Below, one piece after another: positions 8,001 through 47,410 of a stretch of 64,000 bases of DNA. The position numbers and the translations under genes are program-made. The stretch is taken from contig VUYT01000020.1 in assembly GCA_008802785.1 (NCBI GenBank), positions 341,258-405,257 of the forward strand, read 5' to 3'. Position 1 is the stretch's first letter, and every line of letters starts with the position of its first letter. This DNA is from Symmetrospora coprosmae (lineage: Eukaryota > Basidiomycota > Cystobasidiomycetes > Symmetrosporaceae). The notes under the pieces were generated by a model. That model worked only from the letters and a program-made list of their open reading frames with translations. It had not been told where the DNA came from and made no database searches.

Positions 8001-11000
8001 ATGGATGAGCTGGACGAGCGAGCGGAAGATTGTTTGTCGAACGATAACGAGACTTGCATAGGCGGCGAATGGTGCGCCGATGTCTGGGAGACGTGTGAGG
8101 GGTTCGATGGCGGCCGGTGAGTCTGGACGTAGTCGAGCTGGTGCTGGCGATGATCGTTCCGGCCCGCTGACTGAGCTGACTGAGAAGCCCCCTGGAAATA
8201 TGCCAGACTGTTCTCCTCCCCTTGCCCTCGGCTATTGCCAGGCCCCTGCTGCTCCGAATACTGTGCCGGCGGCGAGCTGGTGAATGGCACATCCTCGGCA
8301 AAGCGTTGTTGGCTGTGATATTGCGGCATCTGCGCCTCGGCGGGGCTGAACGCGCTGTACGGTCTCTGTTCGTATGATGCCGCACGGCCCTGTCGCGCGT
8401 GCATATTGTGGAGGTCCTGGGAAGGCTCGGCGAAGCCGCCCGGGAAGTGGCGGTCCTGCTGCTGTCCCTGCTGCCGATGACCGAGAGCATCCTGCAAGGT
8501 CTCGCCAGGATGTAGCGGCAGTCGCTGAGGCCCACCGACAGATTGTAAGGCCGGCGACATGACGACAGGCCTCTGCTGCCCAAGCATCTCGAAAGAGGGT
8601 CGTCGGTTGGCGGAAGTGGATGGCGGATACGAGGGACGACCTTGCTGCTGCTGCTGATGATACTGCCTGGCGTTGTTAGAGTCAAAGTGAGGGGAAGGGA
8701 AGGGAGATTGCTGCTGCTGCTGCTGATGGTAGCCTGAAGCCGAGGCGGGCCTCTGCACGTAGGGTGGGTACGAAGGCACTCTAGGACTGGTATTATTGAG
8801 CGGCGGGCTTCGGAGGTGATTGCTGGTGACTGGCGATAGCTGCGAGTTGAAGCTTTGCTGGCTGGGACCCCTACTCGGCTGCCTCGATCCGCTGGCTTCG
8901 TGACCGGAGGACCTGCCGGTCTGTCCCACTGGGGACGGGCGGCGGGCAATATCATCGTAAATCCTGCCATTGGCTGACGAAGTGCCGGGATAGCCCTGTT
9001 GACGTTGCGCAGATGCGTTGGGCATATGCGAGGGCATCACGGCACCGGAGCGCGGCGGCAATGCTGGAGGCTGCGAGGCCGGCCCTGCTGAGCGCAGATT
9101 GTCCATGCTCTTCGCCATGTGGATACCGCGCACACCCAGACCCGAGGTGGGCGGAATGCCTGGCTGGCTGCCTGGCGTCAAGCCTTGAGGGTGCTCGTGC
9201 GGCTGATATTGCTGCTGGACATGTTCGAAAATAGTTGGAGGGGGCTGAGCGTGTCGTATTGGCGGTGCGCCGTAGCCCGAGCCCGAGGCCGACCCAGACA
9301 TGCCTTGGTGATGAGAAGGCTGCGGGAAGTGCAAGAAACCGGACGGACCCAAGCTCGGAGGAGGTGCATTCCGGCTCGCAGGAGCTTTGGCAGTAGCCAT
9401 GGGCGCACGGCCGCCGTCCTGGTTCGTCGCGGAGTTTGCCCGCGGCCTGTATATCGGCCCTGATGGCCCCACACCCATGAGTTGTGGGCCGAGCGACGCT
9501 TGCGCGTTGCTGTGACTGCCGCTAGTGGACGGGTATTGTTGCTGGCGCAGCGGCATGTTCGGGTACGGCTGCTGCTGCTGCTGCCGGTCGTCCCAGGTCG
9601 ATCGCACCGGCGCCTCTGTCCTTGCTTGTCTGTCTCCTCTTCGCAAATGTCCGGGTCGTTCCAGAAACTCCGGATGACTCTGCTGATCTGACGAGCTGCC
9701 CGCACTCGAGCGTCGATCCCATGGGCTCCTCTGCGACGAGCTCTGCTCTCGATAGTCGGTAGGTGGATGCAGCGAGCCGCCAGATGAGCGGCGGTCATCG
9801 TCGAAGAACGGGGGATTGGGGGGCTGGCGGTCGAGCGGGGGCGAGTGATACGAGGATTGCCTCTGAGGCTGTTGAGCCGGGTCGCTGCGCTGGTGAGGGT
9901 AGCCGCTGCCTTGCGAGTGATACTCTGAATACGCCGGCTCATTCGATACAAGACTAGGTGACTCTTGCGGAGATGAGCGTCGACCTTGCTGTTGGCTGCC
10001 GTAGCCTCTCGGTCGGCTCAATGACGAGTTGCTCGATGTCTCGACCAAAGAGTCTGGACGCTGTGCATATTGTTGGTGCTGGTTATATCGCTCCCTATGA
10101 CTGTCTGATTGATTGGATAGCGGGGGCGGTGGGTAGCTGCCGCTATGAGGCGAGCGTGGTGGATGGAAGTCGGAGCCAGCCTCGGCAGCACCTGCTCTCC
10201 TGTCGCCCGTTCGAGCGTACCCGGCGTGGTGCGATGGAGGCAAGTGAGGCGAAACAGAGGATTGCCCAGACGACGGAGTGCCGGAGACCGCGAGCTGCAC
10301 GAAGAAGAGCGGAGCGGGGGTGATTTCGCCGCTCAAGACGCCCTGGCTGATCTGCCACAGCTCGCTGTCATCGAGCGGGGTGCCCGGGTCGCCCTGTTCG
10401 AGAGACGACAGATGGACTGTGCAGTGGCTAAAATCATCATCCGGTATGTGGGCTTTTGTGTAAAGGCGCTCGCGGATGGCAGCTGACGACTGCACGCCGT
10501 TCAGGTCGACGCGGCTAAGCTGCTCGTGGTCCTGCGTGACGAGGACGAACGTCGGCTTCTTCATTGAGGACGCTGCTGAGCTCGGACCTGGTCGAGAGCT
10601 GCTGCCACCGCTGTTGCTGGCGCTGCCAGAGTGGTGATGCGCCTGTGCGGGTCGCCTGCTGAGCTCGGTAACGGGCGTGCCGCTCGAAGACGACGACGGC
10701 TGAGGCGAGCCGAGGCCTTCCGTGCCTATTCCTATTCCTGCGCCGCTAGGTGCAGCACCACCTCCTGCTCCTCCTGCTGCGCTCCTGTGCTCCGACGAGC
10801 TTGCTGTAGTAGGCCGTACGCTTGCGCTCGCGCTCGGGCTTGCTGTGTCTGCTGGTATTCCTGATGATGATGATGACGATGGTGCGACAAGCGACTCGGT
10901 CGTCGGGGTCCGACTGAACGGCGGCGACGTCTTCAAGTCGGGCGATCTCTGCGCGGACGGATGAGTACGGGGAGCAGTCGGTGAATGCGGTCGATACACA

Positions 11001-11515
11001 CACGCGTAGACGCGAGTCGAGGGGTCGGAGAATCGTCCAGATCAGCGTCTACCGTCGCAATGAGCCCTCGTCTTCCAGGCCAGGCAGGCGGGCCATGTCC
11101 AAGTGCATGCACCCATCTCCTCCCCGGGCTTGCCAATATTCACAGCAGGACAACTCACAGGACCGCTCAAAGGCTGCAGCGACTTGTTGGAGCTGCTGCT
11201 CTTCTCCCTCTCGTGCCTCTGCTTCCTCGACAGCACCTCAAACCCCAGCTCGCGCAGTCCTCCCGATAGCCTATCTAGCCCGCGTCGGGTCCTGCTGCTT
11301 TCGGCAGTGGCAGCGGCGGTGGCAGCGGTCCCAGTCCCAGTGCTCGCAGTGTGCCCTCCTGCGTCCCCTGCACCCGTCCCCGTCGGCGAGGATGAGCCTG
11401 CAGCGGGTCCCGAGGCGGCTAGTGATGCAGCAGGGGCTATGGTGCTGGGTGAGGCAAGCGGGCTGACTGGGTGCTGGTGGTGACTGCCTCGACTCGCGTC
11501 ATCCTTGATGGCCAT
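5043..11515 (-). CDS. BCK1: MAP kinase kinase kinase, Bck1 type (cell-wall integrity pathway)
   Basis: Exons 11515-11159, 10948-6256, 6188-5591, 5525-5447, 5378-5290, 5224-5129 and 5058-5043 give 1975 residues. The first ~1680 residues are a Ser/Pro/Gln-rich disordered region. Inside it is a RA/ubiquitin-like block (about residues 260-340) starting FVLVTQDHEQLSRVDL, typical of fungal Bck1. The C-terminal kinase domain has GKGTYGHVYIG, VAVKQ, ILHRDLKADN, ISDFGISKKS, WMAPEV and DIWSIGCVVLEMFAGRRPW. Bck1 is activated by Pkc1 and phosphorylates Mkk1/2 in the cell-integrity cascade (family knowledge). The last coding exon is a choice: a good GTGAGT donor and CTGAAC branch site give an ending LYKAMTS, while reading through gives TGA at 5127 after LYK. 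Confidence 0.9.
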
Positions 11516-12240: not shown

Positions 12241-15200
12241 CTACCACATCTGATTGCTGCCGCTGTACTGGTGGTGCTGCCCGGCAGTCCTCCGCACAAA
12301 GTTCGATGACGATCCGGCAGTCGTAGTGCCGGCGTTTGCGGCTGCATGTCTGGCGTGCGCCTGCCGATCGTACAGACCTGGCAGAGTGCTTTGTGGGGAA
12401 AACGCCGCTGCCGTGCCCGATGCTGCGGGTTGAGCGTAGGCTGCCGAGGCAGACCCGTGCTGGTAAGGGTGTTGACCGTAGTGATACTGCTGCTGGTATG
12501 CCTGCTCGTGTCCGGCTAGCGGTCCGCCGCCGGGGTACGCAAAAGGGTACGGCGAGGCGGCCTCCATGCGGACTGGGGTGGCTCGGTACTGGTATTGCTG
12601 CTGATACGGGTAGCCTGAAGATGCCTGCCTGCCCTTGTAGGAGCTCGACGCCGCCGAGGTAGGAACGGTCGAATAGGCCTGGTGGGGCGTGCCAGAGGAG
12701 GCAACCGATGGCGAGTACTGAGAAGCGTAGTGGTGCTGCCCGTTGGCCAGTTGCTGGCCGGGCACCTGCATCCAAAAGCTCTCACCACGAGTGCTGCGAG
12801 ACAGAAAGTGTCATTTAGCCGATGCCAAATTGTCCATTTCTCCGGACGGCGAGACTTACTCCTGCCCGGGTACAGCAGAGTGCCCAGCGGCCGGTCCACC
12901 AGCTACCGTGCTCGTTGGCGACTGCGTCGCTGACGTGAAGCCATGTGCATAGCCGCTGTGCGATCCATAAGCACCGCCCGCGTACATTGCCGAAGCCGAT
13001 ACCGGTTGCTGCTGCAAGTGAGCGTGCGAGACGGTGGGCGAATAGCCAGTGGCTGGAGCAAACGGCAACGAGGCGTGCACGTTATACGGCGAGGGAACGG
13101 AGCCATCGTACGACGAGTAGGCAGACGGGTAGCCATAGCTGCTATTCTGCCTCTGGACTCCCGCGGCTCCGGTGCTTGGCATCCGGGGGCGTCTTGGGTC
13201 GTTCAGCGGTAGGGGTGAAGGCGCCGAAACGATACGGTTCTTGTACGGCCCATCGAGCTTGTCGTCGCGCGTCTCGGCAGCGTCCCGATTCTTTCGATCG
13301 ACATCACCTCGCGGCTTCGCATCGGCTGCGGTAGCTCCCGCCTCACTCTCTGCTTTCTGGCTGGTCTGGTTCGCAGCTTCCGTCTCCGAGATGGGCAGAT
13401 CGAGGGCCGAGCTCGGCATCAGCGTGGGATAATCGTCCGCGATGCCGCGCAGAGAGTTCTCCTGCGCAGTCTCGCCCGCCTTCTCCTTTGCAGCAGAAGC
13501 CGCGGCAGCCGTCTCTGGCGTCGGCTTGGACCAGACCGACATGCTGGGGTCGATTGCGGACAGCGAGAACGCTGACGGTGCCATGTGAGATGCGACTCGG
13601 TTGGCAGTCGCCCATGGTGATGCGGTCCGCGCCAGGAAGTGGTTGGGCGAGTCGAGACGTGGCGCAACGGTAAGCGGGGTCTGATGCAAACCAAAGAGAG
13701 ATTGTCAGCAAAGCCGCACAAGAGGCGCATGCGACACGCCTGGTTCCAATATGAGGGACCCACCGAGCTGACAGCCTCGTTGAGCTTCTTGAGTTCCTGG
13801 AGGACGTGCTCTGGAATGGGATGCCTGACACTGGCCTCGAAGGTCGACATCGGGGCGGGCGATGAAGCCGACTTTACGCTGCGCGGAGACGGCGGGCCCG
13901 GCAAAAGAGGGTTCGCTCCGGGAGACAGTGACGGGAATGCTGGCAGCGTCTCCGATACTGCCCTCTTTCCCTCTTGCAAGGAAGCTGGAGTCGAAAGTCG
14001 ACCGCTGCCGACGCCAATGGCAGCAGAGATGGCCGCATCGCTCGATGGCCGGGGCTGCTCGAGCCGGGGAGTGTCAGCCTTCGCAGGTCCGCTGGGCTCT
14101 TTTTGCGGGAGCGGTGCATATAGACTCCTGTCGACAGCATCTTGCGGGGTGATAGCATCGCTCTTGCGGATACCCGTTCCAATCTCACTGGGAACGAAGA
14201 ACATGCTGTGCGCCTGAGCAGGCGTATCGCGCTCCGCCATGTCCGCCGCGCTGCTGTCGTACTTCGGCTCAAGAACTTTCGAGACATTCGTATCTGATAT
14301 CGCGCCCTGCTGGGTTACTGAATGCCGCGCCAGTGACTTTGGCAGAGAGACGCGGATGGCTGATGGCGGACCTTCCAGCAGCGCGTCTTCCCTGAAACTG
14401 ACGGTGGTGTAGTCCTCCGGCTCGGTGGGCGGCGAAGACATCATGTCTGGCGGGTCTTTGACGGTGATTGACTCCTGTGTGATCATGACCTGTACTGGCT
14501 GGGCGGGGCCTGTCGGGCCTGTCCCGCTGATGCTGACCGATCGCCAGCGCTCAGCATCTGATCTAGACGCCTTGGCATGGCTGTCTGGCGGACCTCGGCG
14601 GTCCTCAACACGTGCGATGACTATAGTCCCGCTCTTAACGGCAGCTTCAGCCTCGGCTGCCGATACTTCCACGTCCGCTGAAGGGAGATGAAGGGCAGAC
14701 ACTTTGACGCGAGGCCGCTGGCCCGCCGGCAAGGCTGCATGTAAGTGCTCCTCGAGCATCATGTAGCGAGGCAGATTGAGGTGCTTTGGCTGTGTCCAGC
14801 TGTTCGAGTAGATCGGCGGCGGTTTAGCCGGGTCGTAGAAGCTTCGCTCCTGCCGGGGCGCGATGCTTTGCAGCGATTTCTTGATCTTTGGCAGGCGGAA
14901 ATTGGGCTGGACCTTCCACGGATTCTTGGGCGTAGGAGGGCGCTCGGTCGAAGTGACGTCGAAGACTTCGGGCACAATGTGGATGCGAGGGAAAGGCGGC
15001 GGTGCTTGGGGCCGGGAGGCGGTTAGATGGGCGCCTGCTGATGCAGGAGAGCTCTGGTCTGCTCTGATTCCATCTCTCCGTGACTCCGGCTTCCTCGACG
15101 CCTGGGAAAGGTCGCTTCGAATGGCGCCCTGATCGGTCTTGAGGCCATCCTGCGCTGTCCGGACTGCCAGCATGATCTTGTCGATCGCAGACACGTCGAC

Positions 15201-18200
15201 GGCTTCTGTATCGACGTGCGACGGTGGCGCCAGCGTCGGGGCATAGGCGGCGTCGACCTTGACCCCGCCCGGCACGATGATCGTGGGCTGCGGGAAGGCG
15301 TGCGACAGGAGGATGGCCTCGTTGACCGTAAGTCCCGCCGCCTTTTGTGCCGATTTCCCCAGCTTTACCTGCGGCTGCGCTGCTTTTTGGGGCTGGACCT
15401 TGTCCGCGGATTTAGGTTGCGTGCTAGTCGTTGGCGCCTGCTCAAATGATGCGGGTCTTCGCGGCTGCAGAGGCGATACCGACTGCGAGGGAGGTGCGTT
15501 ACTACCCTGCTGCTGCTGCGATGGCCGCACTGGCGAGATCCGCAACGGCGCTGCATCCGTCTCAAGTGGAACGGAGTCAGATTTGGCAACGACCGGCTCC
15601 ATCGCTTCCACTGCAGTACGAGCTGCAGCAGGCGGAGCGGGGACGGCTCTCCTCCATGATGCACTCGTGATGTCTGCTAATGCGCTGAAGGCAGCCGCGG
15701 ACGGCGGAGCCTTGCCTGTAGATGCAGTGCCAACGGCAGGCTCTTTCTTGTTGACGTTCGCCGGTCCTGCCTTTATGCCCACCGCCTCGGCCGCTTTGAC
15801 TGCATCTGGTTTGCGGGGAGGTGGGTCCTCTTTCACAGTCTCTTTCGCCACTGTAGGCTGCCACAGCTTTCTTTGCGGCTCGGTGATTGTGGCCGTGGCC
15901 TCCGACGCGCTCGAACGCCGCCAAGCAGCTGAGCGGTCCGGCACTGGGCGTGCCAGAGCCGCTGAAGATTTGGAAGAAGCGTCTCTCTCGCTGAGCTGCG
16001 AGGGGTGTGGGCCAGTCTGCCGTGACGGGTTCGACGGGAGGGTGGGTGTCTGTGCTGATCCAGCGGGGAGCGGCGCCGTCTTTGCAGCAGAAGCGGTTGT
16101 ACTAGCGTTCGCGCCTTGAGCGGCTGGTGCGGCCGCTGCCGCCAATCTCGCCTCCAACTCCGCCATCCTCTGCTTCGTACGTTCCTGCGCCGCTTTGCTT
16201 TCAAGCTCCTCCTGCTCTCTTCTCTTTCGCGCACGTTCTGCAATGCCGGCCATCTGCCGCTTGTACTCTTCCTCCTGCTCAGCGACTGTCTTCGGTGCAG
16301 CTTGGCTCTGCTGCGGCGCGGACGTCGTCACAGGCAGCTCGACCTGCGGCTCAGTTTGCACGGCGGGTGCGTTGCTCTGCTGGGTACCAGGAGCTACGAG
16401 CCCTGCTGCGGCAGTCGACTGCGACTGCGCTGTTTGCAAAGACTGCGGAGCCACAGGCGGTAGCTTTGCCCAGGGCGACTTTGCTGGTGCTTGTTCTCGC
16501 TGCTGCTGGGTTGTAGCGGCGGTACCCTCCGTAGCGGACGGAGGTCCTAAAGCTGTCCGTGGCGTGGCAGCGGTGCCATTTACAGGCTTTTGCAGCTGCA
16601 GCGGCTGCTGCTGTTGACCACGAGGCTGTGTCCCTTCTGACGCGGAAGGACGACGTCCTGGCCCAGCTTGCCCCGGACGCTGCAGGACTGCCGGAGGCGA
16701 CCCTTTTCGATCCTTGCCCCTTCCAGCACCGAACGCTGGTGACTGCTTGCCTGCGTACGGCTCCAGCCGGCCCACCTTCTCGTTGTAGAGCGTTCTCGCA
16801 CTAGCCTGTCCATCCCTCCCGCTGCCGCCATTGGCCTGGTTCTGCTGGCCGGCCGCTGCGCCTGGCGCGCCCGACGTGCCTGCCTGCGCAGGCTGAGACA
16901 AGGGCTGCTGCACCCCAAGAGCACGCCGCGGATCGCGAGTCTTCCTGTCGAAGTCGTCTTCGAAAATCTCTGCCTTCTTGAGCGCGCCGGGGATCGAGTA
17001 GTCGACTTCGACAACCTTCTGCGCCGGGGCAGCGGCAGTACCCGGCTTGCCACCCGCTGCGTTTTCCCCGCTCTTCTGGCTCTGCAGCAGCTCAGCGGCC
17101 ACCTGAGCCTCGTACTGCGTCTGCAGCGCGGCTGCCTCGTGCTCCGCCTGCTGTGCTTCACGAAAGGCTGCCACTTCGGCGTCGGTCGGCGCGGCAGGAT
17201 GGCCTTGTGGCACCTCGTACCGCATCCCGTCTGCGAACTCGAGAACGTCATCCATGTCATCTTCTCCGTCCTGTGTACGACATCGGCACATCAGCGCAGC
17301 TCGCGCAAGGCCGGCGACCATATTGCCAGTGTACCGCACCATTTCGTCCCAGTTCATCCCGCCCGTCTCGCTGTGCACGCCCGAGAAGCCCTTGAGGCCT
17401 TCCAGCACGCGCTGATTGTAGGCGGCCTGCGCAGCCGAAGCCATTTGCTCGGCTCGCTCCTTTGCCGCAAATGCATTCTTGCGATTCTCCTCGGCTTGGA
17501 GCGGCCGTCGAGTAAGAAGAAATCAGCTCAGAGCCCTGTCGCCCTTGTGTCCAAAGCGACGGCCACCGTTCTCGCTTCCTCTCGCACTCACCCATGGCCG
17601 TCTCCTGGAAGCTCGGGAAGTCGCTCTGCATCCCTCTGCTCCCTGCCTCTCCCGGACCGCGCCCGCCCGCCCACGGAGCAAAGGGCATACTGCCGCGCCC
17701 CATGCCAGGCGCAGGTGCGAACGCTCCTCCTCTTGCGAATCCTCTCCCTCGGGCGAACGGCGCACCTCGGCCAGCTGGGCCAAAACTTGCTGCGTCGCTC
17801 ACGGGCGCGGCTGGGACAAAGCCGCTGCGCCCAAAGGATGTGTTGGTGCCTGAGCCAGCCGTGGGCGATGTGGTGCTCGCAGGGCCGGTGAAGGGGCCGG
17901 CAGGCCGACCCCAGGTGCCACTGCCTGGCCCGCCACCGCCAAAGGACGAAAGCGACGAGCCGCTGCCGTAGGCGCCACCGCCGCTCAGTGAGGATAGCTT
18001 GCCGGTCAGCAGTCTGGTGGAGGAAGGTAGGCCAGCGTTGGCTAGCGTGGGAGAGGGAGTGGAGGACGAGCCTGGCAGGGGCGCTGCGGGGGATGCGGAA
18101 GACGGCGAGCGTGCTGGTGGTGCGATGCGCGCATCAGCTGTATGTATAGGATGAGGATGAAGCCAGGCACGCTTCTGATCCACTCACCGCCTGCAATGCC

Positions 18201-30008: not shown

Positions 30009-33000
30009 ATGGCCGCACCTCCTCCTGCAGCAGCGGCCCCATCACCACCACATTCGCGACAGCATCACCAGCTCCAGCAGTACCAGCAGCATGCTCATCA
30101 CGACAGTAGAGGGAGCAATGCGAGCAATATGAGCAACGGGAGCACCGGAGGAGGAGGAGGAGCTGGAGCTGGAGCTGGAGCTGCAGGTGTCAGTCAGGTC
30201 CCGCAGGCCCAGCAGCAGCAGCAGCAGCAGCACGCCGCAGGTCCGTCCTCCTCGGCGGCAGCAGTGGGCTACAGCGGCAATGCTGCAGGACAGCAGCAGC
30301 AGCAGCACTACCCATACGCACAAGGGTCGACCTCGTCCCGCAGAGCGCCGTCGACGAGCAGCATCGCGTCAAGCGGGACCGCCTACACGACCTCTGCCCG
30401 CGGGAGCTATGCAGACTCGACGAGTCGCGGCGCAGGAGGAGGAGGATCCTCCATCCACAGCAGCAGCAACGTCAGCGCGCACCTCGAGTCGACAGTGACC
30501 AAGCTGCTCGTGTCGACAAAGCAGCTCCTCGAAGGGCTGACGGACTGGAGTCAGGGCAAGATCTCCGAGGAGCAGGTCTCGGACATCTATGTCCGCCTCG
30601 GCAATTGCTTCAACTCTGCCGTCTCTGCATTCTCCAAAGAAGGCATCAGCATGAGGTCAGTGGATCGTCCAACGCAGCTGATAGAATGGCCTCCCTTGCT
30701 GACGTGCTTCCTTGCCGGACCCTAGAGATCTCAAGGAGGTTCCGCAGCAGCTCCGCATCCGCCTAGAAGCGGCCATAAATGAGGAGGCCTCGACGGCCAC
30801 ATTGAATGAGCACCTGCCAAAGATACGGCCTATCATTCTCGACCTGCTACGCGGGCTACGGGAGAAGCAGGACCAACACCAGGCCCTGCTCGCCTCTCGC
30901 ACGAAAGCGGAGCAGGATGGTGAACGCAGCGCGGCGGCATCGTATGCCGAGAGCAGCCGCTCCTCTTATAGCCAGTCTTCAGCAGCTCACCCTCGCCGGC
31001 AGGCTAGCCTGTCGGGTCAGGGGCAGGCCTCCTCGTCGAGCTCGTCACTCGGCAGCAGCAGCAGAGCACGGCAGCCGAGCATCGGGACCGGACATAGTGG
31101 CCGAGAGAGGGAACGAGAGCACGGACCGTCAAACGGACGATCCAGCCCGGCGCCGTCTCTTGGGTCGTCTGCCGGCAACGTGTCTCGACCATCGAGCAGA
31201 AACGCCCACCATGCTCAGCTCGACGAGAACGATCAGACTGGGCGGAGACCTTCGCATGAACAACACGCATCTTCGTCGCAAGGGTATAGCAATCCGCCTG
31301 CGCGACGACCGTCAAATACACCAGCCCACCCTCGCCCCAACTCCCTCGTCAAATCGCGCTCCTCCTCGTCACTGCGTCCTTCGGGTTCTAGGACCTCGGG
31401 AGGTGGCCCATCCGATACGTCCCCTCTTCCTCCTGAGGCACCACTGCCGCCAATACCTCCCGCATTATCAGTCGGTGGCCCGCCACTCAACGTAACACCC
31501 TCGGCTCGGTCGCCTCTCCCGCTACCGGGCGGTTTGCCTCCCAGACTGCTGTACCCGCCGGACGCCGCAGAGATCGCCACACCGCCAGTTCCCCGCATGA
31601 TGACCGTACCTCCACAAACTTCTTCTTCGGATCCTACGCTCTCAACCACGCCGCCTTCCCTTCAGCCACCTGTCTCGAACGCACCCTCGGCCTTTCACAC
31701 GCCTCCACGAAGCCATCTTCGGCCAATGCCGTCGCAGCAGGGCGGTCCGAGCGGTGGCAGCAGCGGGCAGCAGGACGACGCATCTCTGGAAGCCCTCAGG
31801 AAGGCCGACCCACTGGCGAGACGAGCGAGCAAGCGCTTCTCCGCCTACACCTTCAGCAAGATATCGTCGTCCAACTTGGCAGGGAGTGTCGGCTCGCCCG
31901 GCGGACTGGGGGGACCTTCTTCTCTTACGCCCAGCAAGTCGCATGGTGCGGCGAGCGGCTCGGGCTTGGGAGCGCCTGGCATGGAGCGGGATGATTCGGC
32001 GAGGGAATTCATGAATGCGAGTAGCAGTGACAGGTCCCAGCCCGCATCTTCAACTGTTTCATCGACCATTCGCAAGCCCTCTCGGAAGTCTAGGTCGCCA
32101 AGAAACGAAGAGCCGGAGCCACCCGTACCTGCTCTGCCGCCGATGGACGCTTTACCGATGCTGTCCTTCTCGCCAACGAAGGAGGAGGCGCCACCAGCTG
32201 CCCCGACATCGGGCAGGAAGAAGAGGGTGTCAGTGGTGGCTGAGGAGACGGAAGATCAAGTTGAAGCGGCTGAAAAGGGTCAAACGCATCTTCACCCGTC
32301 GTCATCGAGCTCCGCCTCGCTCACAGCGAAGGGTAATGACGGAGAGCCGCGTAGAGGTCTGCCTCGCTCAGCTTCCTCTACTTCTATCGCCTCGACCGCC
32401 TCTGCCTACTCCGCCAGCGTGCCAGAGTCCACGACTCAGCCTATGCCTAATGGCGAAGGCGGGCCCGCTACACCCATAGCCTCTACGTCCCCCTTGCCAC
32501 CACAAGCCAAAACAGTATACCTGCAGCTGGGAAGGGACATGAAGAAAGCCAAGCTGGACCCTGCCACTTCGCCGACGTTCGCAAGCCTGCGCATGCTCTT
32601 CACGGATCGCTTCGCCTACAATCCCGGATTGGCCGATTTCCCAGCCATTTACGTCCGCGACCAGACGAGTGGAGTGCAGTACGAGCTGGAGGACATGGAC
32701 GAGATCAAGGAACACAGCGTGCTCAGCCTCAATATCGAGCGTGAGTCTGCCTCGGGAGTGTCGGAGCGTTGTCACTAGCTTACACACCTATTCCCCGTGC
32801 CAGCTCTCGACCAGGTCAAACAGCACATCGACGAAGGCCTTGCTGCCCTTACACGAGAGCTGAAGGAGCTCAAGACTGCCATGAACAGCACAAAGCGCGC
32901 TTCCATGGCCTTGGTCAACGCTCAGAGCATCGCTTTGCCAGCCTCTACTCCTACAGTTTCGCCTTCCGCACGCCAAGACCCGACGGAGTCGCAGCTGCAG

Positions 33001-34267
33001 ACTGCTGCGCAACAGGTCTTGCAGATGAAACGGAAGCTCTCATCGGGCATGGCGATACCCACTCGCACAGAGGCTGCGATTGCAGACAACAATCTCGGCC
33101 TGGCGTCGCCGGCGCCCTCAACCGCCTCTGCCACAGAAGCTAGGGTGACTCGTCTCGCCGCTGAGCTCAGGTCGAGCTTCGACGAGATCAAGAGCGTTCG
33201 ACGCGATCTCGGCGCCCTCCGGCAGGTGTACACTGAGTTCCGATCGCAGTCAGCCAACATTATAGGTTCGCTGCGCGCGCAAACCGAACATGTCAAGGGC
33301 CTTGCCAACAGTCAGGTTGCCGGCTCCCGCGCCTTCATCGACACGGGCAAAGCCAAGCTTGACACCCGCAGCCAGGACCTCTTGACGAAAGTGGAGGATC
33401 TGCAGGATACGATCGACGACCTCAAGAACGATGTTACGTCACGTCGGATGCGGCCCAAACCTAAGCAGATGGATGCCATCCGAGCCACCATCAGTTCTAG
33501 CCAGGCCGAGCTTGACGATTTGACGAAGTACATCGCGACGGTCAAGCCAATGTGGAAGAAGACTTGGGAGGCCGAGCTGCAGAATATCGTGGACGAGCAG
33601 CACCTGCTGAACTACCAGGAGGAACTGCTTTCAGATCTCAAGACCGACCACGAGAATGTCGTGAATCTCTTCAACCAGATTGAAGAGTATTCCAGCTTAC
33701 AGCAGACGACGCGCGGTCGCAAACCCTCGTATCGCCCGCCATCACCTGAAGCTGGGCACGAGGGGTTGAGCACTGTCATGCTCGAGATCAAGGGCCGCCC
33801 GCAGGCGTCGGACAAGCGTCTCAAGGCAATTGAGCTAGCAGAGAAGCAGAGGCAGAAGGAAGCGGAGGACCGAACTGACGAGTTCGCAAGCGAGCTCAGC
33901 GGTTTCGTAGAGGGACGGAGATTGAAGAAGACTGGTACGTAAACGAGACTGTCTAGAAGAGGCACGCGCGAAAACCCTGGCTATACAGCTACTGATCCGA
34001 CAATCTCCGTGTCACCGTCTAGGCGGGGCTGAGGAGACGGAGCGGATAAGGCAGGCAAGAAGCGAGGCGTCTCTGCGAGCTATGTTCAGCGGACAGGCTC
34101 CGGTTACGCCAGCGCCGGCGGTGCCCATCCCGACCGGCTCAAAAGCTGCTCCTGCAGATGGTAACAGTGCTGTACCTGCTGCGGCCGAAGCACCGCAGCC
34201 GGCGCCAGATCTGCCAGCGGAAAGTGCTGAAAGTCGGTCCAAGGAGGAAGCCGTCTCTGAAGCTTGA
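30009..34267 (+). CDS. BUD6: Actin-interacting polarity protein Bud6/Aip3
   Basis: Exons 30009-30655, 30726-32740, 32804-33934 and 34023-34267 give 1345 residues. An N-terminal Gln/Ser/Gly-rich segment precedes a conserved helical block (SAHLESTVTKLLVSTKQLLE, then SEEQVSDIYVRLGNCFN and LKEVPQQLRIRLEAAINEEA), the Bud6 N-terminal signature. A long Ser/Pro-rich linker follows. The C-terminal AIP3 domain begins TVYLQLGRDMKKAKLDP and contains LRMLFTDRFAYNPG, YELEDMDEIKEHSVLSLN and extended coiled coils to KRLKAIELAEKQRQKEAE. Bud6 is a polarisome component that delivers actin monomers to formins. Intron 1 starts GTCAGT. It lies close to RHO3, another formin regulator. Confidence 0.9.
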
Positions 34268-37680: not shown

Positions 37681-38388
37681 CTACGCCTCCTGTTGCACCG
37701 GGCCTGTACTCTTGCCGCCACCTGACTTGTGCGGCTCGTTCAGGTGGAGCTTGCAGAGGTCCACGCTCGAGCTATTCTCGCTCGGGACATATTTTGGTGC
37801 TCTTGCGAGGCGCAGAGCCACCTCGGCATCGCTCTTTGCGCTGATATCGCTCTGCTTGGCAGGCGACGTGACTCTCTTGTCCGCAGGGGCGAGCAGGTGC
37901 GAGGATGAATGGAAATAGTCCATGTCCTCCTCGGACGGTGTAATGACGGCTCCGGGCAGAGGGCTCCTAGGTGCCTTGCTGCACACCCACACCAACGACG
38001 GGCTGTCCCTTCCTTCAAACTCCCTCACTTGCTTCTCCCTGTAGTGCCGCCGCCGACTGGGCTGCTGCTGCTGCTGCTGCTGCGCCCTAGCTGTTGATGG
38101 TTCGTCCGTGCTGGATCCAGACTCGGCAGAGCTGTCCAGGGAGGGGCAGTCATGGTCTGCCGCGCTGCTCTCGCTGCTGGTGTTGCTGCTCGAGGTGAAG
38201 AATGAGATGTCTGCATGTTCTCGGTCCTTCAGCTGCGCCGCTCTCTGTATACCAAACAGCCAAGCCAAGCGAGCGGACTCACGTGGAGAGGACGAGGCGG
38301 ACGAGGCGGACGACGTCGAAGAGGAGGACGCAAATTGCCCTTCTGAGCAGGATGAGGACGACGGCAGCATGATCCGGCTCGACATCAT
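37681..38388 (-). CDS. Hypothetical Ser-rich protein (235 aa)
   Basis: A single open frame from a double ATG (MMSSRIML) to TAG. I do not recognise it. Residues 10-40 are almost all Ser/Ala, an acidic Ser-rich stretch follows, then poly-Gln with a basic RRRHYREKQVREFEGRD segment. Short motifs that could be conserved are LVWVCSKAPRSPLPGAVITP and RLARAPKYVP. Composition indicates disorder. A GTGAGY-like splice donor overlaps the stop (TAG/GTGAGC at 37676), so a spliced extension cannot be excluded. Supported by frame length and codon use only. Confidence 0.55.
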   Translation of the reverse strand: MMSSRIMLPSSSSCSEGQFASSSSTSSASSASSSPRESARLAWLFGIQRAAQLKDREHADISFFTSSSNTSSESSAADHDCPSLDSSAESGSSTDEPSTARAQQQQQQQPSRRRHYREKQVREFEGRDSPSLVWVCSKAPRSPLPGAVITPSEEDMDYFHSSSHLLAPADKRVTSPAKQSDISAKSDAEVALRLARAPKYVPSENSSSVDLCKLHLNEPHKSGGGKSTGPVQQEA

Positions 38389-38822
38389 GTTGTGCAGAAG
38401 CCAGAGAGGGCCTTTCCCAGTCAGCAATCACGTCAAGCTCATCACCGCCCTGCCCTGCCCAAACCCTGCCCAAACCCCCTTTATCCGCTGACGGAGACGG
38501 AGACGCGGGCCCGCAGCCCCCTTAATTCAAGCTTTTCGGCCCAGTGACGCAAGGGACAGGAGGGCGACAGGGAAGCTGGGGGATCTGCACAGGGAGAGGG
38601 AAAGGCAGAGCATGCTGCGCATTGCACATCTCCCGGACAGCTCGGCCTGGCGAGCCGTATGGGCGTCGCTGTTCTTGTCGTGTCTAGCGATACATGTCTG
38701 TCGGCAGCGGCCAGAGGGGCCTGAGGTTCTGGAATGATACAGAAAGAGAGCGAGCAGAGTCACAGTGAAATGCGCGAGTAAGACTGCAGCAGAAGAGCAA
38801 AGAGAAGGATAGCGAAGCAATG
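38389..38822. other. Intergenic: orphan upstream / kinase 3' flank
   Basis: 434 bp between two leftward genes. Contains a CCCTGCCC-type short repeat (38450-38475) next to the orphan's start. Nothing else recognised. Confidence 0.5.
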
Positions 38823-41800
38823 CTAGTGAGCCGCTGCTCGAGCCCGGGCCTTTTCGGCCTTGATGAGCCCTTCGAGGTCCTTGACGACCTCGCTCATGTC
38901 CGGCCGTTGCTTGGGGTCTTGCGCCCACATTCTATCGATGAGATCGAGAGGCTCTCCACCCCACTGCCGGCGCATCGTCGCGGTCGAAGGGCGGAATTGC
39001 TTGCCCCCGACTTCGTGGTAGATGGCGTGCTCGTTCATGCCTTCGAAAGGATAGCGTTTCTGGGACAGGTGCCACTGCAGGCACTCCCAGAACACGAGGG
39101 CTGCCGAGTAGACGTCCACCTTCTCGTTGTATCGCGGGTGCGCTACCCACAGCTCCGGTGCCTGCCAGTTGACGGTCCCCACGAGAGACTTGATGATGGA
39201 TCGGGTCGAGTTGCGCACGCGCGCAAGGCCAAAGTCGGCAATCTTGGCAACACCGCGAGCGGTAATGAGGACGTTGCTCGACTTCATGTCTCGGTGGACA
39301 ATGGTCGGCTTGCGCTTGTGCAGATAGTCCAGGCCTTTCGCAATATCCAGCATGATACCGAGCTAGAGTGGGCAGACAGTGTCAGTAGATGAGCGCAGCA
39401 GGCGTAAAGGCGCTCCACTCACGATCTTCTCGAGCGGAGGAGGAGGCGTGTTGCGAATGTAGTCGAAGAGGTCGCCATTCGAGCAGAGCTCTGTGACGAT
39501 GCAGACTGGCACGTCCCTTTCTACGGGGATGACGACGCCAATGAAACGGACGACATTGGCATGTCGAAGATCCCGGAGCAGACCCAGTTCTTTCAGGTCG
39601 TTCTCGGTGAGATGCCCTCGAATATCGGCAAGCGCAACCTTGACGTTGCGATACTTGCCCTCATAGCTGTTCAGCACACAGAGCACGCGGCAAACTGTCA
39701 GCAAGGCCACTCCCTGACCTCGCTATGGACAGACCACTCCACTGACACATCTTTGAAGCCACCGCTTCCGATCTTCTCGCCCTTCTTGATCTTGTCAGGG
39801 TGGATCTCCTTGTCGACGAGGTTCAGGCTCTCCAGGTCGAGCTCAAGATCGTTATTCTGCTGGTCCCCGCTGCCTGGCGGGGTGTCAATCTTTTTGGAGT
39901 GCGGAGGATTATGGTCCTGCTGACTCTGCAGGAGGATAGGCTTCTGCTGCGATCCAGAATCGTACGACTGTCGCCTATTGCTGAGCTTGGCGAGCGCCTG
40001 TGTCTTTGTTTCGTTCCTTGCCCGGCGAATGGTCGAGTCGGAGCCGGCACTGGAGAGGGATGAGTCGGAATTCTCGGATCCCTCATCGTCCTCCTCGCGT
40101 TCTTGAGCGTCATCATTGCCATCGCCTGCCTCCTCGTCGCCCTCGGCGGAGACGACGGACATGTCTCCCTCGGCTTCCGATGAGTCCGGTGACTCCTCGT
40201 CGGCTTGGGATTGGTGCCACTTCAGCAGGCCGATGGCCATATCTCTCTTCGTTCCGTCCGTCCCGAGCTCGCGGTCTTCGCTGAGCTTGACCAGGGCGTC
40301 TCGCTTCAGCTTGAGTAAACTGCTAAGTGTCGCCTCTCCCAGGTCGAAATCTGCCGTGGAAGCGGCATCGTCTTCTTTCCCATCCTCGTCCTCCTCATCT
40401 TCCTCTGCGAAAGAAACCAAGTCGTGTTGACTTTCGCCTCGAAGGCTGCCCGCTCTGCTAGAACGGCGGCTCCGTCTCAGGCCGGTGGCTTGCGGATCTT
40501 CCTCCGGCTCCTGTTCCTCCTCCTCCTCCTGCTCCGCTGCACCCTCTTCTTCGCTCGTCAGCTCGACAATGCTACCACGCTTCTTTGCCTTCCTGGGCAG
40601 GGACACTTTGCGCAGCCGGTACTCCTGGTTTGGCAAGTCCTCATCATCTTCGTCACCAAAGCCTGCCGAGCTTGCTGACAGAGTCGATATGTTTCTGCGG
40701 TGCCTGGTCCTCCGGGCTACAGGCGTCGGCATGTCGTCCTCGTCCATCTCTGCTGTAGGCGCAGGTGCGGAAATCTCCTCATCCTGGTCAGAGGATGAGA
40801 GCATGGAGGCGGAAGAAGCGCGCAATTTGCCAGAACGGAGTCTGCCAGGCGTCCGGCTCGCGACGGCATCGGGACGTCCATTACCCAGGCCTGTAGCGCC
40901 CGCAGAGGCGCCTCTTCCGCTATTTGATGACCGCTTTCTAGAGTGACGCGCGGCGGGTGCGTCTGCGAATGGGTCTGCATTGTGCGGTAGCCTCGATGCG
41001 TCTCCAGCGTCGTCATCGCTAGACGAGGCTGCATCGCTCTGGTCAACGGGCGGATAGGATCGAGATCGCTGGTTCCGATGCGAGCGGTTCGTCCGAGGTG
41101 ACTTGCGGGGTGAGATCGACACGGGCGCCGAGCTGTATGCCATCGAACGACTCGATTGCCGACGCGTGCTGAGTGTATCCTCCTCCTCGTCCTCCACATC
41201 CTGCTCGTCTTCTTCGTCATCGTCGCCTTCGACAGAGGAGGAGCTGGATGGCTGATGCTGAAGCTCTTCTTCCTCCCCCTCTTCCGCGATCCGTCTATTG
41301 TCCAGGATGATCTTGACGAGGCCGTCTTTCGTGAAATCGACCCTGCTCTCATCCTCATCTCCGGACAGCTGCTCGACCAAGCGGAGCAGCTTATCCTTGC
41401 GCAGGCGATGAAGTTGTGCCATCGAGGCTGACTGCAGGAGATAGGCACTGTCCGGCTCCTCCGATGCGGAGGCGTTGCTGTCCGTTTCTTCCTCCTCCTC
41501 GTCCTGATCTGGAATCTCGTCGAGCGACATAGAGGCGATACTCCTCTCGATCGACTCCCCGTCACTGTCCTCCTCATGCCTCTCCACTCCCGCAGTCTCC
41601 AGTGTTTGGCCTTCTACGTCATCTTCCACCTCTTCCTCCCCGTCTTCCTCTTCCACAGGACTGTGCGATTCGCTGACAGGTACGCCAAGCCTCTCAATCT
41701 TCCTTGCTATCGAGCGCGTTCGGCGGAGAGGCTGAAAGCCAGCCATCGCTGCCTGGTCTGGCTCAGGAGCAACGGCGGGGCTCGCAGAACGCTGCAACGA

Positions 41801-42985
41801 CACGCGAGACGTGCTCCGAGACATCCGGTCCTTCTCCTCCCGCTTTCGCTTCCCGTTCAGGCTGCCGTTGCTCGTTGAGCCCGGGATGCGGACCGTATCG
41901 GACGCCACAGCGTGAGCGGGCAGGTCACTGCGCTTCCCGCCATTTGCACGCTGCATCACCTTGCCGGCGATCTTGCGGAACCCGGCCTGGAAGCTCCGTC
42001 CGACGTTATTTGAGCCGGTCGCCGCTGAGGGCAGGGTACGACTTGCAGCGCTGCCGAACGGTAGGTCCGGCCTGACCTGGAAGTTCCGGCCGGCGATGGT
42101 GCCGCTTGCGGCGTAGCGTTGGTTGGCGGGGAGGAGCTTGACGGGCGAGTTACTGAAGCGGGCCAGCGTATTTGCAAAGGGCATCTCTCTGCTGACGAGG
42201 AATGGGGAAGAGCAGGTTCAGTGACGGTGCTGCCCGCCGTTGCGTAAAGCCGCTCATCACGCGCGCCAAACGCACCTTCTGATCTTGGCAACAGCTGATC
42301 TGCCTTTCTTTGTCGCAGCAATCTGCGCAGCAGTCCCATTGCTGCGCCTGCGCTGCTTGCGCCTCGCTGCGTTGACTTCAAGCGGCGACAGTGGTTTAGG
42401 GGAGAGCGAGCTTCTGGCAGACGTTTCCGCGGCTGAAGAAGAGGTGTCGCTGTGCTCCAGCACAGAAGTGCGGCGCGCGCTGCTTCCTCTCTGATGTCGC
42501 TTTGCAGCTTTTGCATCGCCGCCACTCTTTCTGCTGGTACCGTGCTTCTTCTCCTTCGACGCGCCACCAGCCGCGCGTGGACGCGCCTCGTCCTCGGTGG
42601 TCGCCGTATTGACGTAGTCGTCATCATCTTCGTTGTCGTGCTCGTCTGAGCTGGACGACGACGAAGAAGGTGAGGAGAGGGACGAGTCCGAGCTTGCGTT
42701 CTCGTCTACTGTGCTTGCAGAGTGCTGGAGCAGCCTCCGTCGCTTGGTCGGCGGCTGCGACCTTCTATACCTTGCGCCGCCGTGACGCCCGAGCACGCCC
42801 ATGTCGTCCACGTCGTGCTCCTCCTCGTCGTCCTGCTCCTTCGCCCTTCCTTTCCCCTTGTCCTGGGTCGAGCTGATGTGGACGCGCCCACGACCAGCAG
42901 CCGCAGAGCCAGAGGTAGCGGCGGCAGCAGCAGCTCCACTACCGGCGCCAATTGAGCGAGTACGGGCCAGACGCAGCGAGGGCAT
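38823..42985 (-). CDS. Large nuclear-type protein with SAP-like repeats and a C-terminal TKL-like kinase domain lacking the VAIK lysine
   Basis: Exons 42985-42276, 42188-39747, 39666-39423 and 39362-38823 give 1311 residues. The N-terminal thousand residues are acidic/Ser-rich with nuclear-signal-like basic clusters (PPTKRRR, GKRKREEK). Two similar helical repeats occur, LHRLRKDKLLRLVEQLSG (about 490-535) and LLKLKRDALVKLSEDREL with GTKRDMAIGLL (about 855-895), resembling SAP/LEM-like DNA-binding helices. The kinase domain (about 1035-1305) has GSGGFKDVYEG, TELCSNGDLFDYIRN, VHRDMKSSNVLI (Asp1157, Asn1162), ADFGLARV (Asp1175) and WQAPELW. The place of the usual ATP-binding Lys is Ala1064 (VALADI). 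Lys1049 in the glycine-rich loop takes the position of the WNK lysine. Intron 2 (GTCAGT donor) lies inside this loop. Substrate and pathway unknown. Confidence 0.85.
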
Positions 42986-43877: not shown

Positions 43878-44964
43878 CTAGCAGTGCCAGCTGGACTGTG
43901 CAAGCGGAAGAGAGGGATCCTGGTCAGCTTATTCAGTGCTGACGTACTCCTAGCCCACGCAACTCACGTCTCTGTTGGTCTTGCCGCCGACATACTCGTA
44001 TGCCTCAAGGCCAAGGCATTCGGCCACGCTGACAAGCTTGTACCCGTGCTCCTGGAGGACCTCCACTGCCTGCGGGACGACATCATCGGCAGTCGTGCGA
44101 TACGTCTCGTGGTTGAGGCCGATGCCGGGTGCCGGGTAGCGCGATGCCTGGTCCTCGTACTGCTTCCGCGAGTACGAAGGCCCGTGTCCAGTCGAGTCGC
44201 CAGAGTCCATCGACCACATGATGGCTGCGGGCGGGGGAGACGTCAGCTTTAGGAAGCCTTCTCGTGACAGGTCAGACGACTGAACTCACTGGAGTAGCCT
44301 CGCTGTGCGAGCACCTCTAGCGCGTCATCGTCATAATTGCCATAGGGCGGCCTGAAGAGCTTGGGCTTGATGCCGAGGATCTTCTTGAGCGCAACCTCGA
44401 CCTTCTCCAGCTCCTGGTTGAGTTGCGAGGCCGAGAGCTTGGTGATGTCGGCGTGCGACCAGGTGTGCGAACCAATGATGTGGCCAGCGTTGAACGTGTC
44501 ATTGAGCTCATCGGCCTTGTCGTATATGCAGTCATCTGTCAAGGTCGTCAACGTAAAAGCAAAGGGTCAGCTTGGCTATGAATTGCGTACTTCCGCACTT
44601 CTGGGAATGCAGGACTTGACTCACAATTGTTACCGTTGAGGAAGAATGTCCCAGTAGCACCATGCTTGTCAAGAGCGTCGACAATCTGGCCCTGGTAGTT
44701 GTACGGTCCGCTGCGGTAAGGGAGCAAGAACACCAGCATCAGGGACGAGCTTCCCCGGCATAGCATGGCATGACATAGACCCATGACTGACTCGTCAAAT
44801 GTGAGTGCGAACTGGCCAGAGTTTTTGCACTTGGTGTAGACCTGCGAGCGTCCGCCAGCTCGTGGCTTGATGTCTGCCGGGGCAGCCATGGTGATGGTAG
44901 CAGCGAGTGCGGCAGCCAGCACAAGGAACGAAGCCGAGCGAGATGAGCAGGATGCAGACAGCAT
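43878..44964 (-). CDS. Secreted polysaccharide (chitin) deacetylase, NodB domain
   Basis: Exons 44964-44792, 44710-44625, 44535-44290, 44224-43968 and 43895-43878 give 259 residues. Residues 1-27 form a signal peptide (SASFLVLAAALAATITMAAP). The carbohydrate esterase family 4 motifs are all present: TFDDGP (Asp57/58), SHTWSH (His110, His114), RPPYG, and LNHETY near the end. These enzymes remove N-acetyl groups from chitin or related polymers in a metal-dependent way, in the wall or outside the cell. The last exon is only 18 nt and gives the ending RDSSWHC, which I accept because fungal secreted members often end in such a Trp/Cys tail; without it the protein would end DVSCVG. No GPI signal is seen. 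Intron 1 splits the catalytic Asp codon. Confidence 0.9.
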
Positions 44965-45404: not shown

Positions 45405-47410
45405 TCACGTTACCGAGTCCTGCTGCTTCATGACAGCATCCTGCGCGGTCGCTGTGGGGGTCGGTATCTGCGATGCAGTATCGGTTTCCTGCTGAGTCGC
45501 GGTGCTCCTCCGCTTTTTGCGCGCTGCAGCGTTCCTCGCTGCCTTCTTCTCATCTGCAGTGAGAGCAGTGGTACCTGCAGCTGCTTTGGCTGTTCTCTGA
45601 CCGGAGGGCTTACGGTTCGACGGCTTCCGCTGCACGGTCGAGGGCGCTGCTGCTCCGGCACCTCCATCGAGGCTACTGCGCCCAGCAGCGACCGCGGCAT
45701 CCGCTACACCCGAAGGACCGGCAAGCGCCCCAGCGTTGGCTTCGCTTCGGCCTTGATCATTCGACTTGTCCTCTTGCTCCTTCTCTTCTCGTTCTCGCTC
45801 CTCCTCCTCCGTAGCGAGCCAGGTGCTCAGATCTGGTGGGATCTGCTGCATGGCCACGCTCGGAGCGCCATGCATAAAGCGAAGCCTCTCGAGGATACCG
45901 ACGCGGATACGCTCCAGGTCTTTGCGCGTGTTCTGGTTCTCCACTCTGCCGGTAATGGGCGGATGCAGCTTGTAGTCGGGCGCAAAAAAGCTATCGTACG
46001 ATGTGGAAGGCAGAAAAGCAGACAGCTCCTGGTGCTGGCCGACCAGAACTGCAGTCTCGTACGTCCAGCATCGCGCGACGTTTTTGACGGTGTATCCTCC
46101 TCCGCCCAGGACAAGGAGAGGTATGTTGAAGGCCTTGATGAAGCGGACGCACTCGCCGTGAGCGGCGATGGACAGATTGAAGGCTCCCAACCTGTCACAG
46201 CCTAGCGAATCGGCACCGCATTGCAGCACAATGGCTGAAGGGCGGAAGGTGTAGATTGTGGGCTCCATGATTGACTTGAAGAGCGAGACGTACGACTCGT
46301 TGTCGATGCCGTCCTGAAGCGGAATGTTCAGGCTGAAGTACTTGCCGAGCTGGTTCCCGATCTCGTCGATATGACCGGTACCCGGGAAGAAGCTCTCTGC
46401 GTATTTGTGGAAGGAGACGGTCAGGACGCGGTTCGAGTTGTAGAAGGCTTCCTGACTGTGGGCAGCGAGAGGCACGATCAGTATGGCTGAGACGGGGCGC
46501 TGCAGATCGTTTCGCAGGGCCAGACGTACACCCCGTCTCCATGGTGGATGTCGATGTCGATGTAAAGCACGCGCGCGTGGACCCTGCATGCGTGAAAGCT
46601 TCAGCTCCTGATAGGCAGGCCAGGAGCACCTGTTCACAGACTCACTTGAGAAGCTCGAGGATGGCCAGTACGATGTCGTTGATGTAGCAGAACCCACTTG
46701 CTTCGAACTTCTTGGCGTGATGAAGTCCGCCAGTCCAGTTGATGGCTATGTCCGTCTGTCCCGAGGCTAGCTTTTTGCCAGCAGCTACCGAGGCGCCGGC
46801 ATACTGCTTGAAGTAGTCGTACATCCCGTCGAAGACAGGGCAGTCGTCGCCAATGTTGAACTTGGAGAGCACGTTGCCGAATTGTGCGACGTTCTGCGGC
46901 GTGACCCTCGTGGAAGCACAGAGAGCTAGCTGCTCAGCAATGTACCAGGATAGCTGAGGTCGCAGTGCTGAATAGAGACCTACTTGGAGAGAAAGTCGAT
47001 GTAGTCTTCCTCGTGGAATGAGTGCAGCTCGTCTTCGGTTGCCATGCGAGGCTGGTAGACGTCCATGTGCTTATGCAGGCCATACCCCAGCACGAGGTGG
47101 TTTGTGAGGGTCAGACGCTGCGGTTTCATCGGATGGCGTTCCTGCACAGATAGAGCTCGGGTTCAGCTGTGCTGTACTGTTTAGCAGTGTCCGGCAGCTG
47201 TACACACCCCGAAGTGGTATTCTCCGACGTCCTTGGGGAAGAAGTACGAGACCTTTGGCTTGTGCTGGAAGGCGGGTCAGGCAGCAGGCAGGCAGGCGTA
47301 AGCTTCGCACCACATTCATGTTTGCGCCTACTCACTGCTGTCGCTGCGCTTCCGCCCCGCCAGCTTGCGCCTTCCAGCTCATCGTCGGCCTTTGCCGTGG
47401 ACGTGACCAT
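45405..47410 (-). CDS. HOS2: Class I histone deacetylase, Hos2/HDAC3 type
   Basis: Exons 47410-47336, 47264-47208, 47141-46984, 46906-46646, 46583-46526 and 46451-45405 give 551 residues. Sequence marks include [39 protein letters not shown] with zinc ligands in [40 protein letters not shown] and [20 protein letters not shown]. The [10 protein letters not shown]-like [13 protein letters not shown] and [17 protein letters not shown] place it with Hos2 (Set3 complex) rather than Rpd3. A ~150-residue basic, Ala/Ser-rich tail ([15 protein letters not shown]) follows the catalytic core. The fifth donor is uncertain: GTC at 46525 gives DGVYEAFY, GTGTAC six bases earlier would give DGEAFY. Confidence 0.92.

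What the first reader, a model, noticed from the sequence alone, without database searches (positions are those of the whole stretch)
38823..42985. Kinase without the VAIK lysine but with a WNK-like lysine in the glycine loop
Seen: the spliced domain has GSGGFKDVYEG and VALADI, so the normal ATP-binding Lys is Ala1064, while Lys1049 sits in the G-loop strand. HRD, the Asn and DFG are intact, so the domain is unlikely to be a dead pseudokinase. Known: WNK kinases lack the VAIK Lys (Cys250 in WNK1) and use Lys233 in the pattern GxGSFKTVY. The rest of this domain looks TKL-like, not WNK, so the relocation may be convergent or mark a fungal kinase family.
Basis: partly seen in the sequence, partly recalled or inferred. 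Interest (0 to 1): 0.75.

Follow-up and report, generated by a model that had tools for sequence, protein, structure and literature searches.

The report
Fungal kinase with a relocated lysine
A fungal gene encodes a protein kinase that lacks the usual ATP-gripping lysine but carries a lysine at the spot used by the human WNK kinases, on a kinase that otherwise looks like another kinase group, so the same trick may have evolved separately.

Summary
The minus-strand gene 42985..38823 (four exons, 1312 aa) ends in a complete kinase domain. The other canonical residues checked are intact. Of 72 donor/acceptor pairs tested around the intron beside the loop, 30 keep the frame open, none makes a VAIK lysine, and only the proposed one gives a full loop. 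The domain is TKL/TK-like: CTR1 leads by sequence (130.6 bits, WNK1 96.6) and fold. The three trees drawn put it with TKL/TK, away from WNK (support 80/93 to 95/96), but AU tests do not reject a joint WNK clade (p 0.12-0.34). None of 63 bacterial, archaeal and viral kinases has this lysine. Best reading: an active Ser/Thr kinase of TKL type with a WNK-style catalytic lysine, probably gained independently; WNK1 and POMK are published precedents. No fungal orthologue could be reached, so conservation, and with it the idea of a family, is untested.

The parts
42276..42985 (-). exon 1, from ATG at 42985
   Evidence: gene model
42192..42275 (-). intron 1 (84 nt, GTGCGT..CAG)
39747..42191 (-). exon 2: low-complexity Ser/acidic/basic region and the start of the kinase domain, up to GSGGFKDV
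   Evidence: no Pfam family at E 0.001 in the open frame that holds this exon
39667..39746 (-). intron 2 (80 nt, GTCAGT..CAG), splits the Val1052 codon two codons after Lys1050
   Evidence: alternatives listed
39423..39666 (-). exon 3: YEGKYRNVKVALADI.. through the hinge
   Evidence: PF07714 1.4e-09 on the open frame that holds this exon
39363..39422 (-). intron 3 (60 nt, GTGAGT..TAG)
38823..39362 (-). exon 4: C-lobe, stop codon ends at 38823
   Evidence: PF00069 1.1e-30
38874..39790 (-). protein kinase domain, residues 1038-1296 (introns 2 and 3 inside)
   Evidence: PF07714 E 1.7e-44, PF00069 E 2.1e-43; AlphaFold2 model of residues 1030-1312, pLDDT 89.5, pTM 0.90
39752..39754 (-). Lys1050 codon (AAA), third-glycine position of the G-loop, start of beta 2
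   Evidence: beta 2 starts at this residue in the model
39627..39629 (-). Ala1065 codon (GCC), VAIK-lysine position in beta 3
39588..39590 (-). Glu1078 codon, alpha-C glutamate (same alignment column as a WNK1 Glu; its WNK1 number 268 is recalled)
39273..39296 (-). HRDMKSSN, catalytic loop, residues 1156-1163
39228..39236 (-). DFG, residues 1176-1178

Best explanation
The gene encodes a 1312-residue protein: a long low-complexity N-terminal part followed by one C-terminal kinase domain of tyrosine-kinase-like (TKL) type. [quoted passage not shown] The small Ala1065 leaves room for it. The relocation was most likely gained on a TKL background, independently of WNK. Shown here: the sequence, the gene model, the alignment positions, the intact remaining motifs, the predicted fold and the TKL/TK affinity. 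Inferred: activity, the salt bridge and convergence. Not shown: conservation in other fungi, and any substrate or pathway.
For: Lys1050 and the WNK1 G-loop lysine share one alignment column, as do Ala1065 and the WNK1 cysteine (the WNK1 letters equal PDB 6cn9_A over 268 residues). Of 22 positions listed, the only two that depart from the canonical kinase are Lys1050 and Ala1065, so the site is not decaying at random. Best solved relatives: CTR1 130.6 bits, ZAK/MLTK about 120, WNK1 at best 96.6. The N-lobe alone is nearest to SRC-ABL ancestor and CSK, with no WNK in the 60 rows shown of 500. C-lobe alone: CTR1 97 bits, WNK3 65. AlphaFold2 gives a confident kinase fold, with Lys1050 as the first residue of beta 2 and Ala1065 in beta 3. 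The fold search is led by CTR1, FES, TNNI3K and ZAK, with no WNK in the 50 rows shown of at least 2000. Trees: the query is on the TK/TKL side with 80/93, 95/96 with the columns around the two trait sites left out and 94/99 with 23 rows, same columns left out. Precedent: a beta-2 lysine, and loss of activity on its mutation, in WNK1 and POMK (PMC10211241, passages).
Against: One sequence only: no orthologue was found, so neither the lysine nor the missing VAIK lysine is shown to be conserved. AU tests do not reject a query+WNK clade (p 0.326, 0.124, 0.177, 0.344), and the query is a long branch. No activity or RNA data. TKL is the group with the most pseudokinases, predominant in plants and fungi (PMC10211241, passage), so loss of the VAIK lysine could simply mean a dead kinase that happens to carry a lysine there. 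The AlphaFold2 alignment was made of bacterial, archaeal and viral kinases at 21-32% identity, and the coordinates could not be measured.
Confidence: 0.6

Rival explanations
1. It is a pseudokinase: the VAIK lysine was lost and Lys1050 is incidental. The domain binds partners, perhaps nucleotide, but does not transfer phosphate.
For: VAIK lysine absent. [quoted passage not shown] No activity data.
Against: HRD, Asn, DFG, alpha-C Glu, APE, the F-helix Asp and the last Arg are intact, and a lysine sits at a position proven to substitute in WNK1 and POMK. Among 63 background kinases with a residue there none has lysine (60 Gly, 2 Ser, 1 Ala), so a chance lysine is uncommon, at least in that mostly bacterial sample.
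Confidence: 0.22
2. It is a divergent member of the WNK family whose remaining sequence has drifted towards TKL.
For: Same two positions changed as in WNK1. AU tests do not reject the joint clade. WNKs have been reported in microsporidia, described there as fungi-related parasites in a listed abstract (PMC4280135, passages; PMC2078597, listing).
Against: CTR1 beats WNK1 by 34 bits over the domain. N-lobe and C-lobe each prefer TK/TKL. The three trees drawn put it with TK/TKL (the fourth tree, with all columns, was not drawn). DFG rather than DLG, GTVNWQAPE rather than GTPEFMAPE, KSSN rather than KCDN.
Confidence: 0.1
3. Another basic residue in the N-lobe, such as Lys1061 (RNVKVAL, same face of beta 3), does the work, and Lys1050 only shapes the loop.
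For: Lys1061 lies four residues before Ala1065 in beta 3 (beta 3 spans this stretch in the model).
Against: By general knowledge of kinase structure (recalled) that position points to the solvent end of the adenine pocket, not to the phosphates, whereas a beta-2 lysine is a proven substitute in WNK1 and POMK.
Confidence: 0.05
4. Gene-model or sequencing artefact: another exon junction restores a VAIK lysine.
For: No RNA data; the donor GTCAGT is not the commonest form (recalled).
Against: Of 72 GT/AG pairs within 39800-39600, 30 are open, none gives a VAIK-like lysine, and only the proposed one gives a full loop. Ala1065 is the 13th full codon of exon 3, and GCC to a lysine codon needs three changes.
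Confidence: 0.02

Closest known systems
WNK kinases (WNK1, PDB 6cn9)
   Same: Lysine at the third-glycine position of the G-loop, small residue at the VAIK position, alpha-C Glu kept, HRD and Asn kept.
   Different: WNK1 has DLG, GTPEFMAPE and HRDLKCDN, and groups with STE and other kinases in the trees drawn; the query has DFG, GTVNWQAPE and HRDMKSSN and groups with TKL/TK.
POMK / SGK196
   Same: VAIK lysine missing and supplied from beta 2 (PMC10211241, passages).
   Different: POMK also lacks the canonical HRD and DFG aspartates and phosphorylates a sugar (same passages); the query keeps HRD and DFG.
CTR1-type TKL kinases (PDB 3ppz) and ZAK/MLTK
   Same: CTR1 is the best match by sequence and fold; 36% identity to the CTR1 region, 37% to MLTK.
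   Different: Both have Gly at the loop position and the VAIK lysine.
FslK, fungi-specific kinases related to tyrosine kinases (PMC3937382)
   Same: Fungal, TKL/TK-like, no AARN motif, predicted active.
   Different: Most are reported to conserve the residues for ATP binding, and the lineage to be lost in Ustilaginomycotina and Pucciniomycotina (parts 1 and 2 of 3 of the text read). No FslK sequence was available to compare.

Membership tests
WNK kinases | no lysine at the VAIK position | tested here: met
   Ala1065 aligns with the WNK1 cysteine
WNK kinases | lysine at the third-glycine position of the G-loop | tested here: met
   Lys1050 aligns with the WNK1 G-loop lysine
WNK kinases | phylogenetic place within the WNK clade | tested here: inconclusive
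   trees drawn put it with TK/TKL (80/93, 95/96, 94/99), but AU p 0.124-0.344 does not reject query+WNK
WNK kinases | DLG in place of DFG and the activation-segment letters of WNK1 (one WNK of known letters compared) | tested here: not met
   query DFG and GTVNWQAPE against DLG and GTPEFMAPE
WNK kinases | chloride/osmotic regulation and SPAK/OSR1 substrates | not testable with these tools
   biochemistry only
TKL group | nearest solved relatives are TKL/TK | tested here: met
   CTR1 and MLTK lead by sequence, CTR1 by fold; PF07714 152.5 bits against PF00069 149.1 is only a slight lean
TKL group | tree place with TKL/TK rather than STE, WNK, AGC, CMGC | tested here: inconclusive
   met in the three trees drawn (95/96 at best), but the AU tests leave the WNK alternative open; place within TKL unresolved
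TKL group | Ser/Thr-type KxxN in the catalytic loop | tested here: met
   HRDMKSSN
TKL group | CW(x)6RPxF near the end, shared by TKs and TKLs (PMC3937382) | tested here: inconclusive
   MWAQDPKQRPDM: W(x)6RP kept, C and F replaced by M
FslK | tree place with FslK sequences | not tested
   no FslK sequence in the collections at hand
POMK | HRD and DFG aspartates missing, sugar substrate | tested here: not met
   HRD and DFG intact; substrate not testable

The most novel reading that the evidence does not exclude
A so far undescribed fungal TKL kinase family has moved its catalytic lysine from beta 3 to the G-loop independently of WNK and POMK and stayed active. The vacated beta-3 pocket next to the new lysine could then serve, as in WNK, as a site for an anion or another small regulator.
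Probability: 0.4. Interest if true: 0.65.

Novelty: new variant of a known kind. Interest (0 to 1): 0.5.

Why it matters
The VAIK lysine is used routinely to call a kinase dead. A TKL kinase that keeps everything else and has a lysine at the WNK spot would be a further, probably independent, case of the same relocation. It would show that beta 2 is a repeatable alternative, correct activity calls for fungal kinomes, and offer a natural test of whether the relocation brings WNK-like ion sensitivity with it.

Tried and rejected
Own genome: none is held for this window. Relatives in viral contigs with the kinase domain: no pattern match. In genome contigs: 6 stretches matched a pattern, none a relative. 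With alignments A1 and A2: 2 and 1 viral loci and 70 bacterial and archaeal loci, useful only as background and as an alignment for folding. DNA patterns in viral contigs: NWQAPELW gave 0 stretches; GGFKDVY gave 3 stretches whose open frames have no phmmer match to the kinase, which shows that the seven letters alone are not diagnostic.

SAP-like modules: I read two N-terminal stretches (about 490-545 and 855-900) as possible SAP modules. Pfam lists no SAP match even with max E 10, though its filters drop most weak matches, and BLASTP finds only a six-residue match between the two, so this is dropped.

First structure job: the N-lobe alone, folded without an alignment, gave pLDDT 41 and is not used. 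The second job (A3, 39 rows) is the one reported. Coordinates were not in the Python box, so the lysine-to-phosphate distance was not measured.

Literature: nine searches of the PMC CC library; in the rows they listed (for only 20 of 167 and 25 of 94) I saw no title or abstract start describing this lysine in a fungal TKL kinase. The motif string GGFKDVY is in 0 papers. Passages of PMC2838846, PMC12599244, PMC1420674, PMC11588334, PMC5052723, PMC3682881 and PMC7586955 were also seen and name no such case. Subscription papers are mostly not in that library, so this is not proof that it is unpublished. From memory, not from a call: I believe similar GGFKDVY..VAI(S/A) kinases are annotated in mushrooms.

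Dropped rows: 9 of 73 loci (L001-L073) gave no hit at 1e-5 and are not among the 64 background rows; one of the 64 (L065) has no residue at the loop column. A3 used 38 of the 61 rows kept.
Full report
What was checked. The minus strand from 42985 to 38823 holds four exons, three introns of 84, 80 and 60 nt with GT..AG ends, and a single frame of 1312 residues plus stop. Pfam finds one domain region, PK_Tyr_Ser-Thr PF07714 (1.7e-44, 152.5 bits, residues 1038-1296), with Pkinase PF00069 close behind (149.1 bits, families up to E 1). The three stretches sampled from the first 1000 residues are low-complexity: Ser 14-16%, acidic 11-24%, basic 13-17%.

The odd site. Of the 22 positions listed (the freely varying gatekeeper among them), only these two depart from the canonical kinase; HRD, catalytic-loop Lys and Asn, DFG, APE, the F-helix Asp, the last Arg and the alpha-C Glu are there. 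In an alignment with WNK1, CTR1, MLTK and the CSK N-lobe, Lys1050 stands in the column of the WNK1 G-loop lysine and Ala1065 in that of the WNK1 cysteine. CSK aligns without a gap through both sites, so the register is safe.

Is it an artefact? Intron 2 begins 5 nt after the Lys1050 codon. I listed GT/AG pairs within 39800-39600 (introns of 40 nt or more): 72 pairs, 30 with an open frame, 17 of these with VALADI kept, none with a VAIK-like lysine, and only 39746/39667 with an intact GSGGFKDVYEG loop. GCC to a lysine codon needs three changes.

What kind of kinase. Against all PDB chains, CTR1 scores 130.6 bits, ZAK/MLTK about 120, an EGFR construct 118, the SRC-ABL ancestor 116, TNNI3K 113, DLK 112 and WNK1 at best 96.6 (60 rows shown of 2615). 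The N-lobe alone, which holds the odd site, is nearest to the SRC-ABL ancestor and CSK, with no WNK in the 60 rows shown of 500. The C-lobe alone gives CTR1 97 bits and WNK3 65 (60 rows of 2530). An AlphaFold2 model of residues 1030-1312 with 38 bacterial, archaeal and viral kinases as alignment reached pLDDT 89.5 and pTM 0.90, with Lys1050 as the first residue of beta 2 and Ala1065 in beta 3. Foldseek ranks CTR1, FES, TNNI3K and ZAK first, with no WNK in the 50 rows shown of at least 2000.

Trees. With 18 comparison kinases the query falls on the TK/TKL side (branch support 80/93). With the columns around the two trait sites left out this is 95/96. With three bacterial TKL-like kinases and a recalled plant WNK added it is 94/99, trait columns left out. 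A fourth tree (all columns) was tested but not drawn. Against the reading: the AU test does not reject a query+WNK clade in any of four tests (p 0.326 and 0.124; 0.177 and 0.344). Its place inside TKL is not resolved and its branch is long. Convergence is therefore the better-scoring reading, not a demonstrated one.

Background. In 64 bacterial, archaeal and viral kinases aligned to the query, none of the 63 with a residue at the loop column has lysine there (60 Gly, 2 Ser, 1 Ala), and 63 of 64 keep the VAIK lysine, the other having Arg. These were gathered with patterns that allowed K as well as G at that position in part of the search. They are mostly bacterial and many are close to each other, so this is a rough yardstick, not a census of eukaryotic TKLs. 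In the 23-row tree alignment only WNK1 and the recalled plant WNK share the trait.

How it most likely works. In WNK1 the lysine comes from beta 2 instead of beta 3 and mutating it abolishes activity. POMK does the same from beta 2, and restoring the usual arrangement there even improves activity (PMC10211241, passages; WNK1 also in PMC4718504, passages). [quoted passage not shown] By analogy Lys1050 would hold the ATP phosphates and pair with Glu1078, with Ala1065 leaving room. KSSN rather than AARN in the catalytic loop predicts Ser/Thr rather than Tyr specificity (motif from PMC3937382, parts 1 and 2 of 3 read). Chloride sensing as in WNK is not implied: the query has DFG where WNK1 has DLG; the role of the DLG leucine in the chloride site is recalled, not looked up.

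What could not be done. No eukaryotic collection was at hand. Scans of viral and prokaryotic contigs found no orthologue. FslK, the fungal TK-related lineage, is reported as mostly conserving ATP-binding residues and as lost in Ustilaginomycotina and Pucciniomycotina; whether the query belongs there was not tested.

Verdict. A real feature: a new variant of a known trick (WNK-type lysine relocation) on a kinase of another group. Interest is moderate until orthologues and activity are shown.

Noticed in passing
L004:1483-2265, L005:1480-2250, L006:1483-2304: Bacterial MAGs, one named Candidatus Amoebophilus, encode TKL-like kinases (L004: PF07714 7.2e-68, 115 bits to the query, and a WQAPE motif like the query's), possibly acquired from a eukaryotic host.
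   Followed up: partly
window 30703-33942, + strand: Two adjacent open frames (691 and 387 aa) together match Aip3p/Bud6 N-terminal and AIP3 domains, probably one spliced Bud6-like gene.
   Followed up: no
window 45405-46745, - strand: Open frame matching the second half of the histone deacetylase profile (PF00850, 4.1e-41), so probably part of a spliced gene.
   Followed up: no
window 44249-44566, - strand: Polysaccharide deacetylase match (PF01522, 9.4e-22), chitin-deacetylase-like, next to the kinase gene.
   Followed up: no
window 37681-38427, - strand: 248-codon open frame with a run of seven glutamines and Ser-rich stretches, no Pfam family at E 0.001, just downstream of the kinase gene.
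   Followed up: no
window 6233-11041 and 13419-17522, - strand: Very long open frames (1602 and 1367 aa) without a Pfam match at E 0.001.
   Followed up: no
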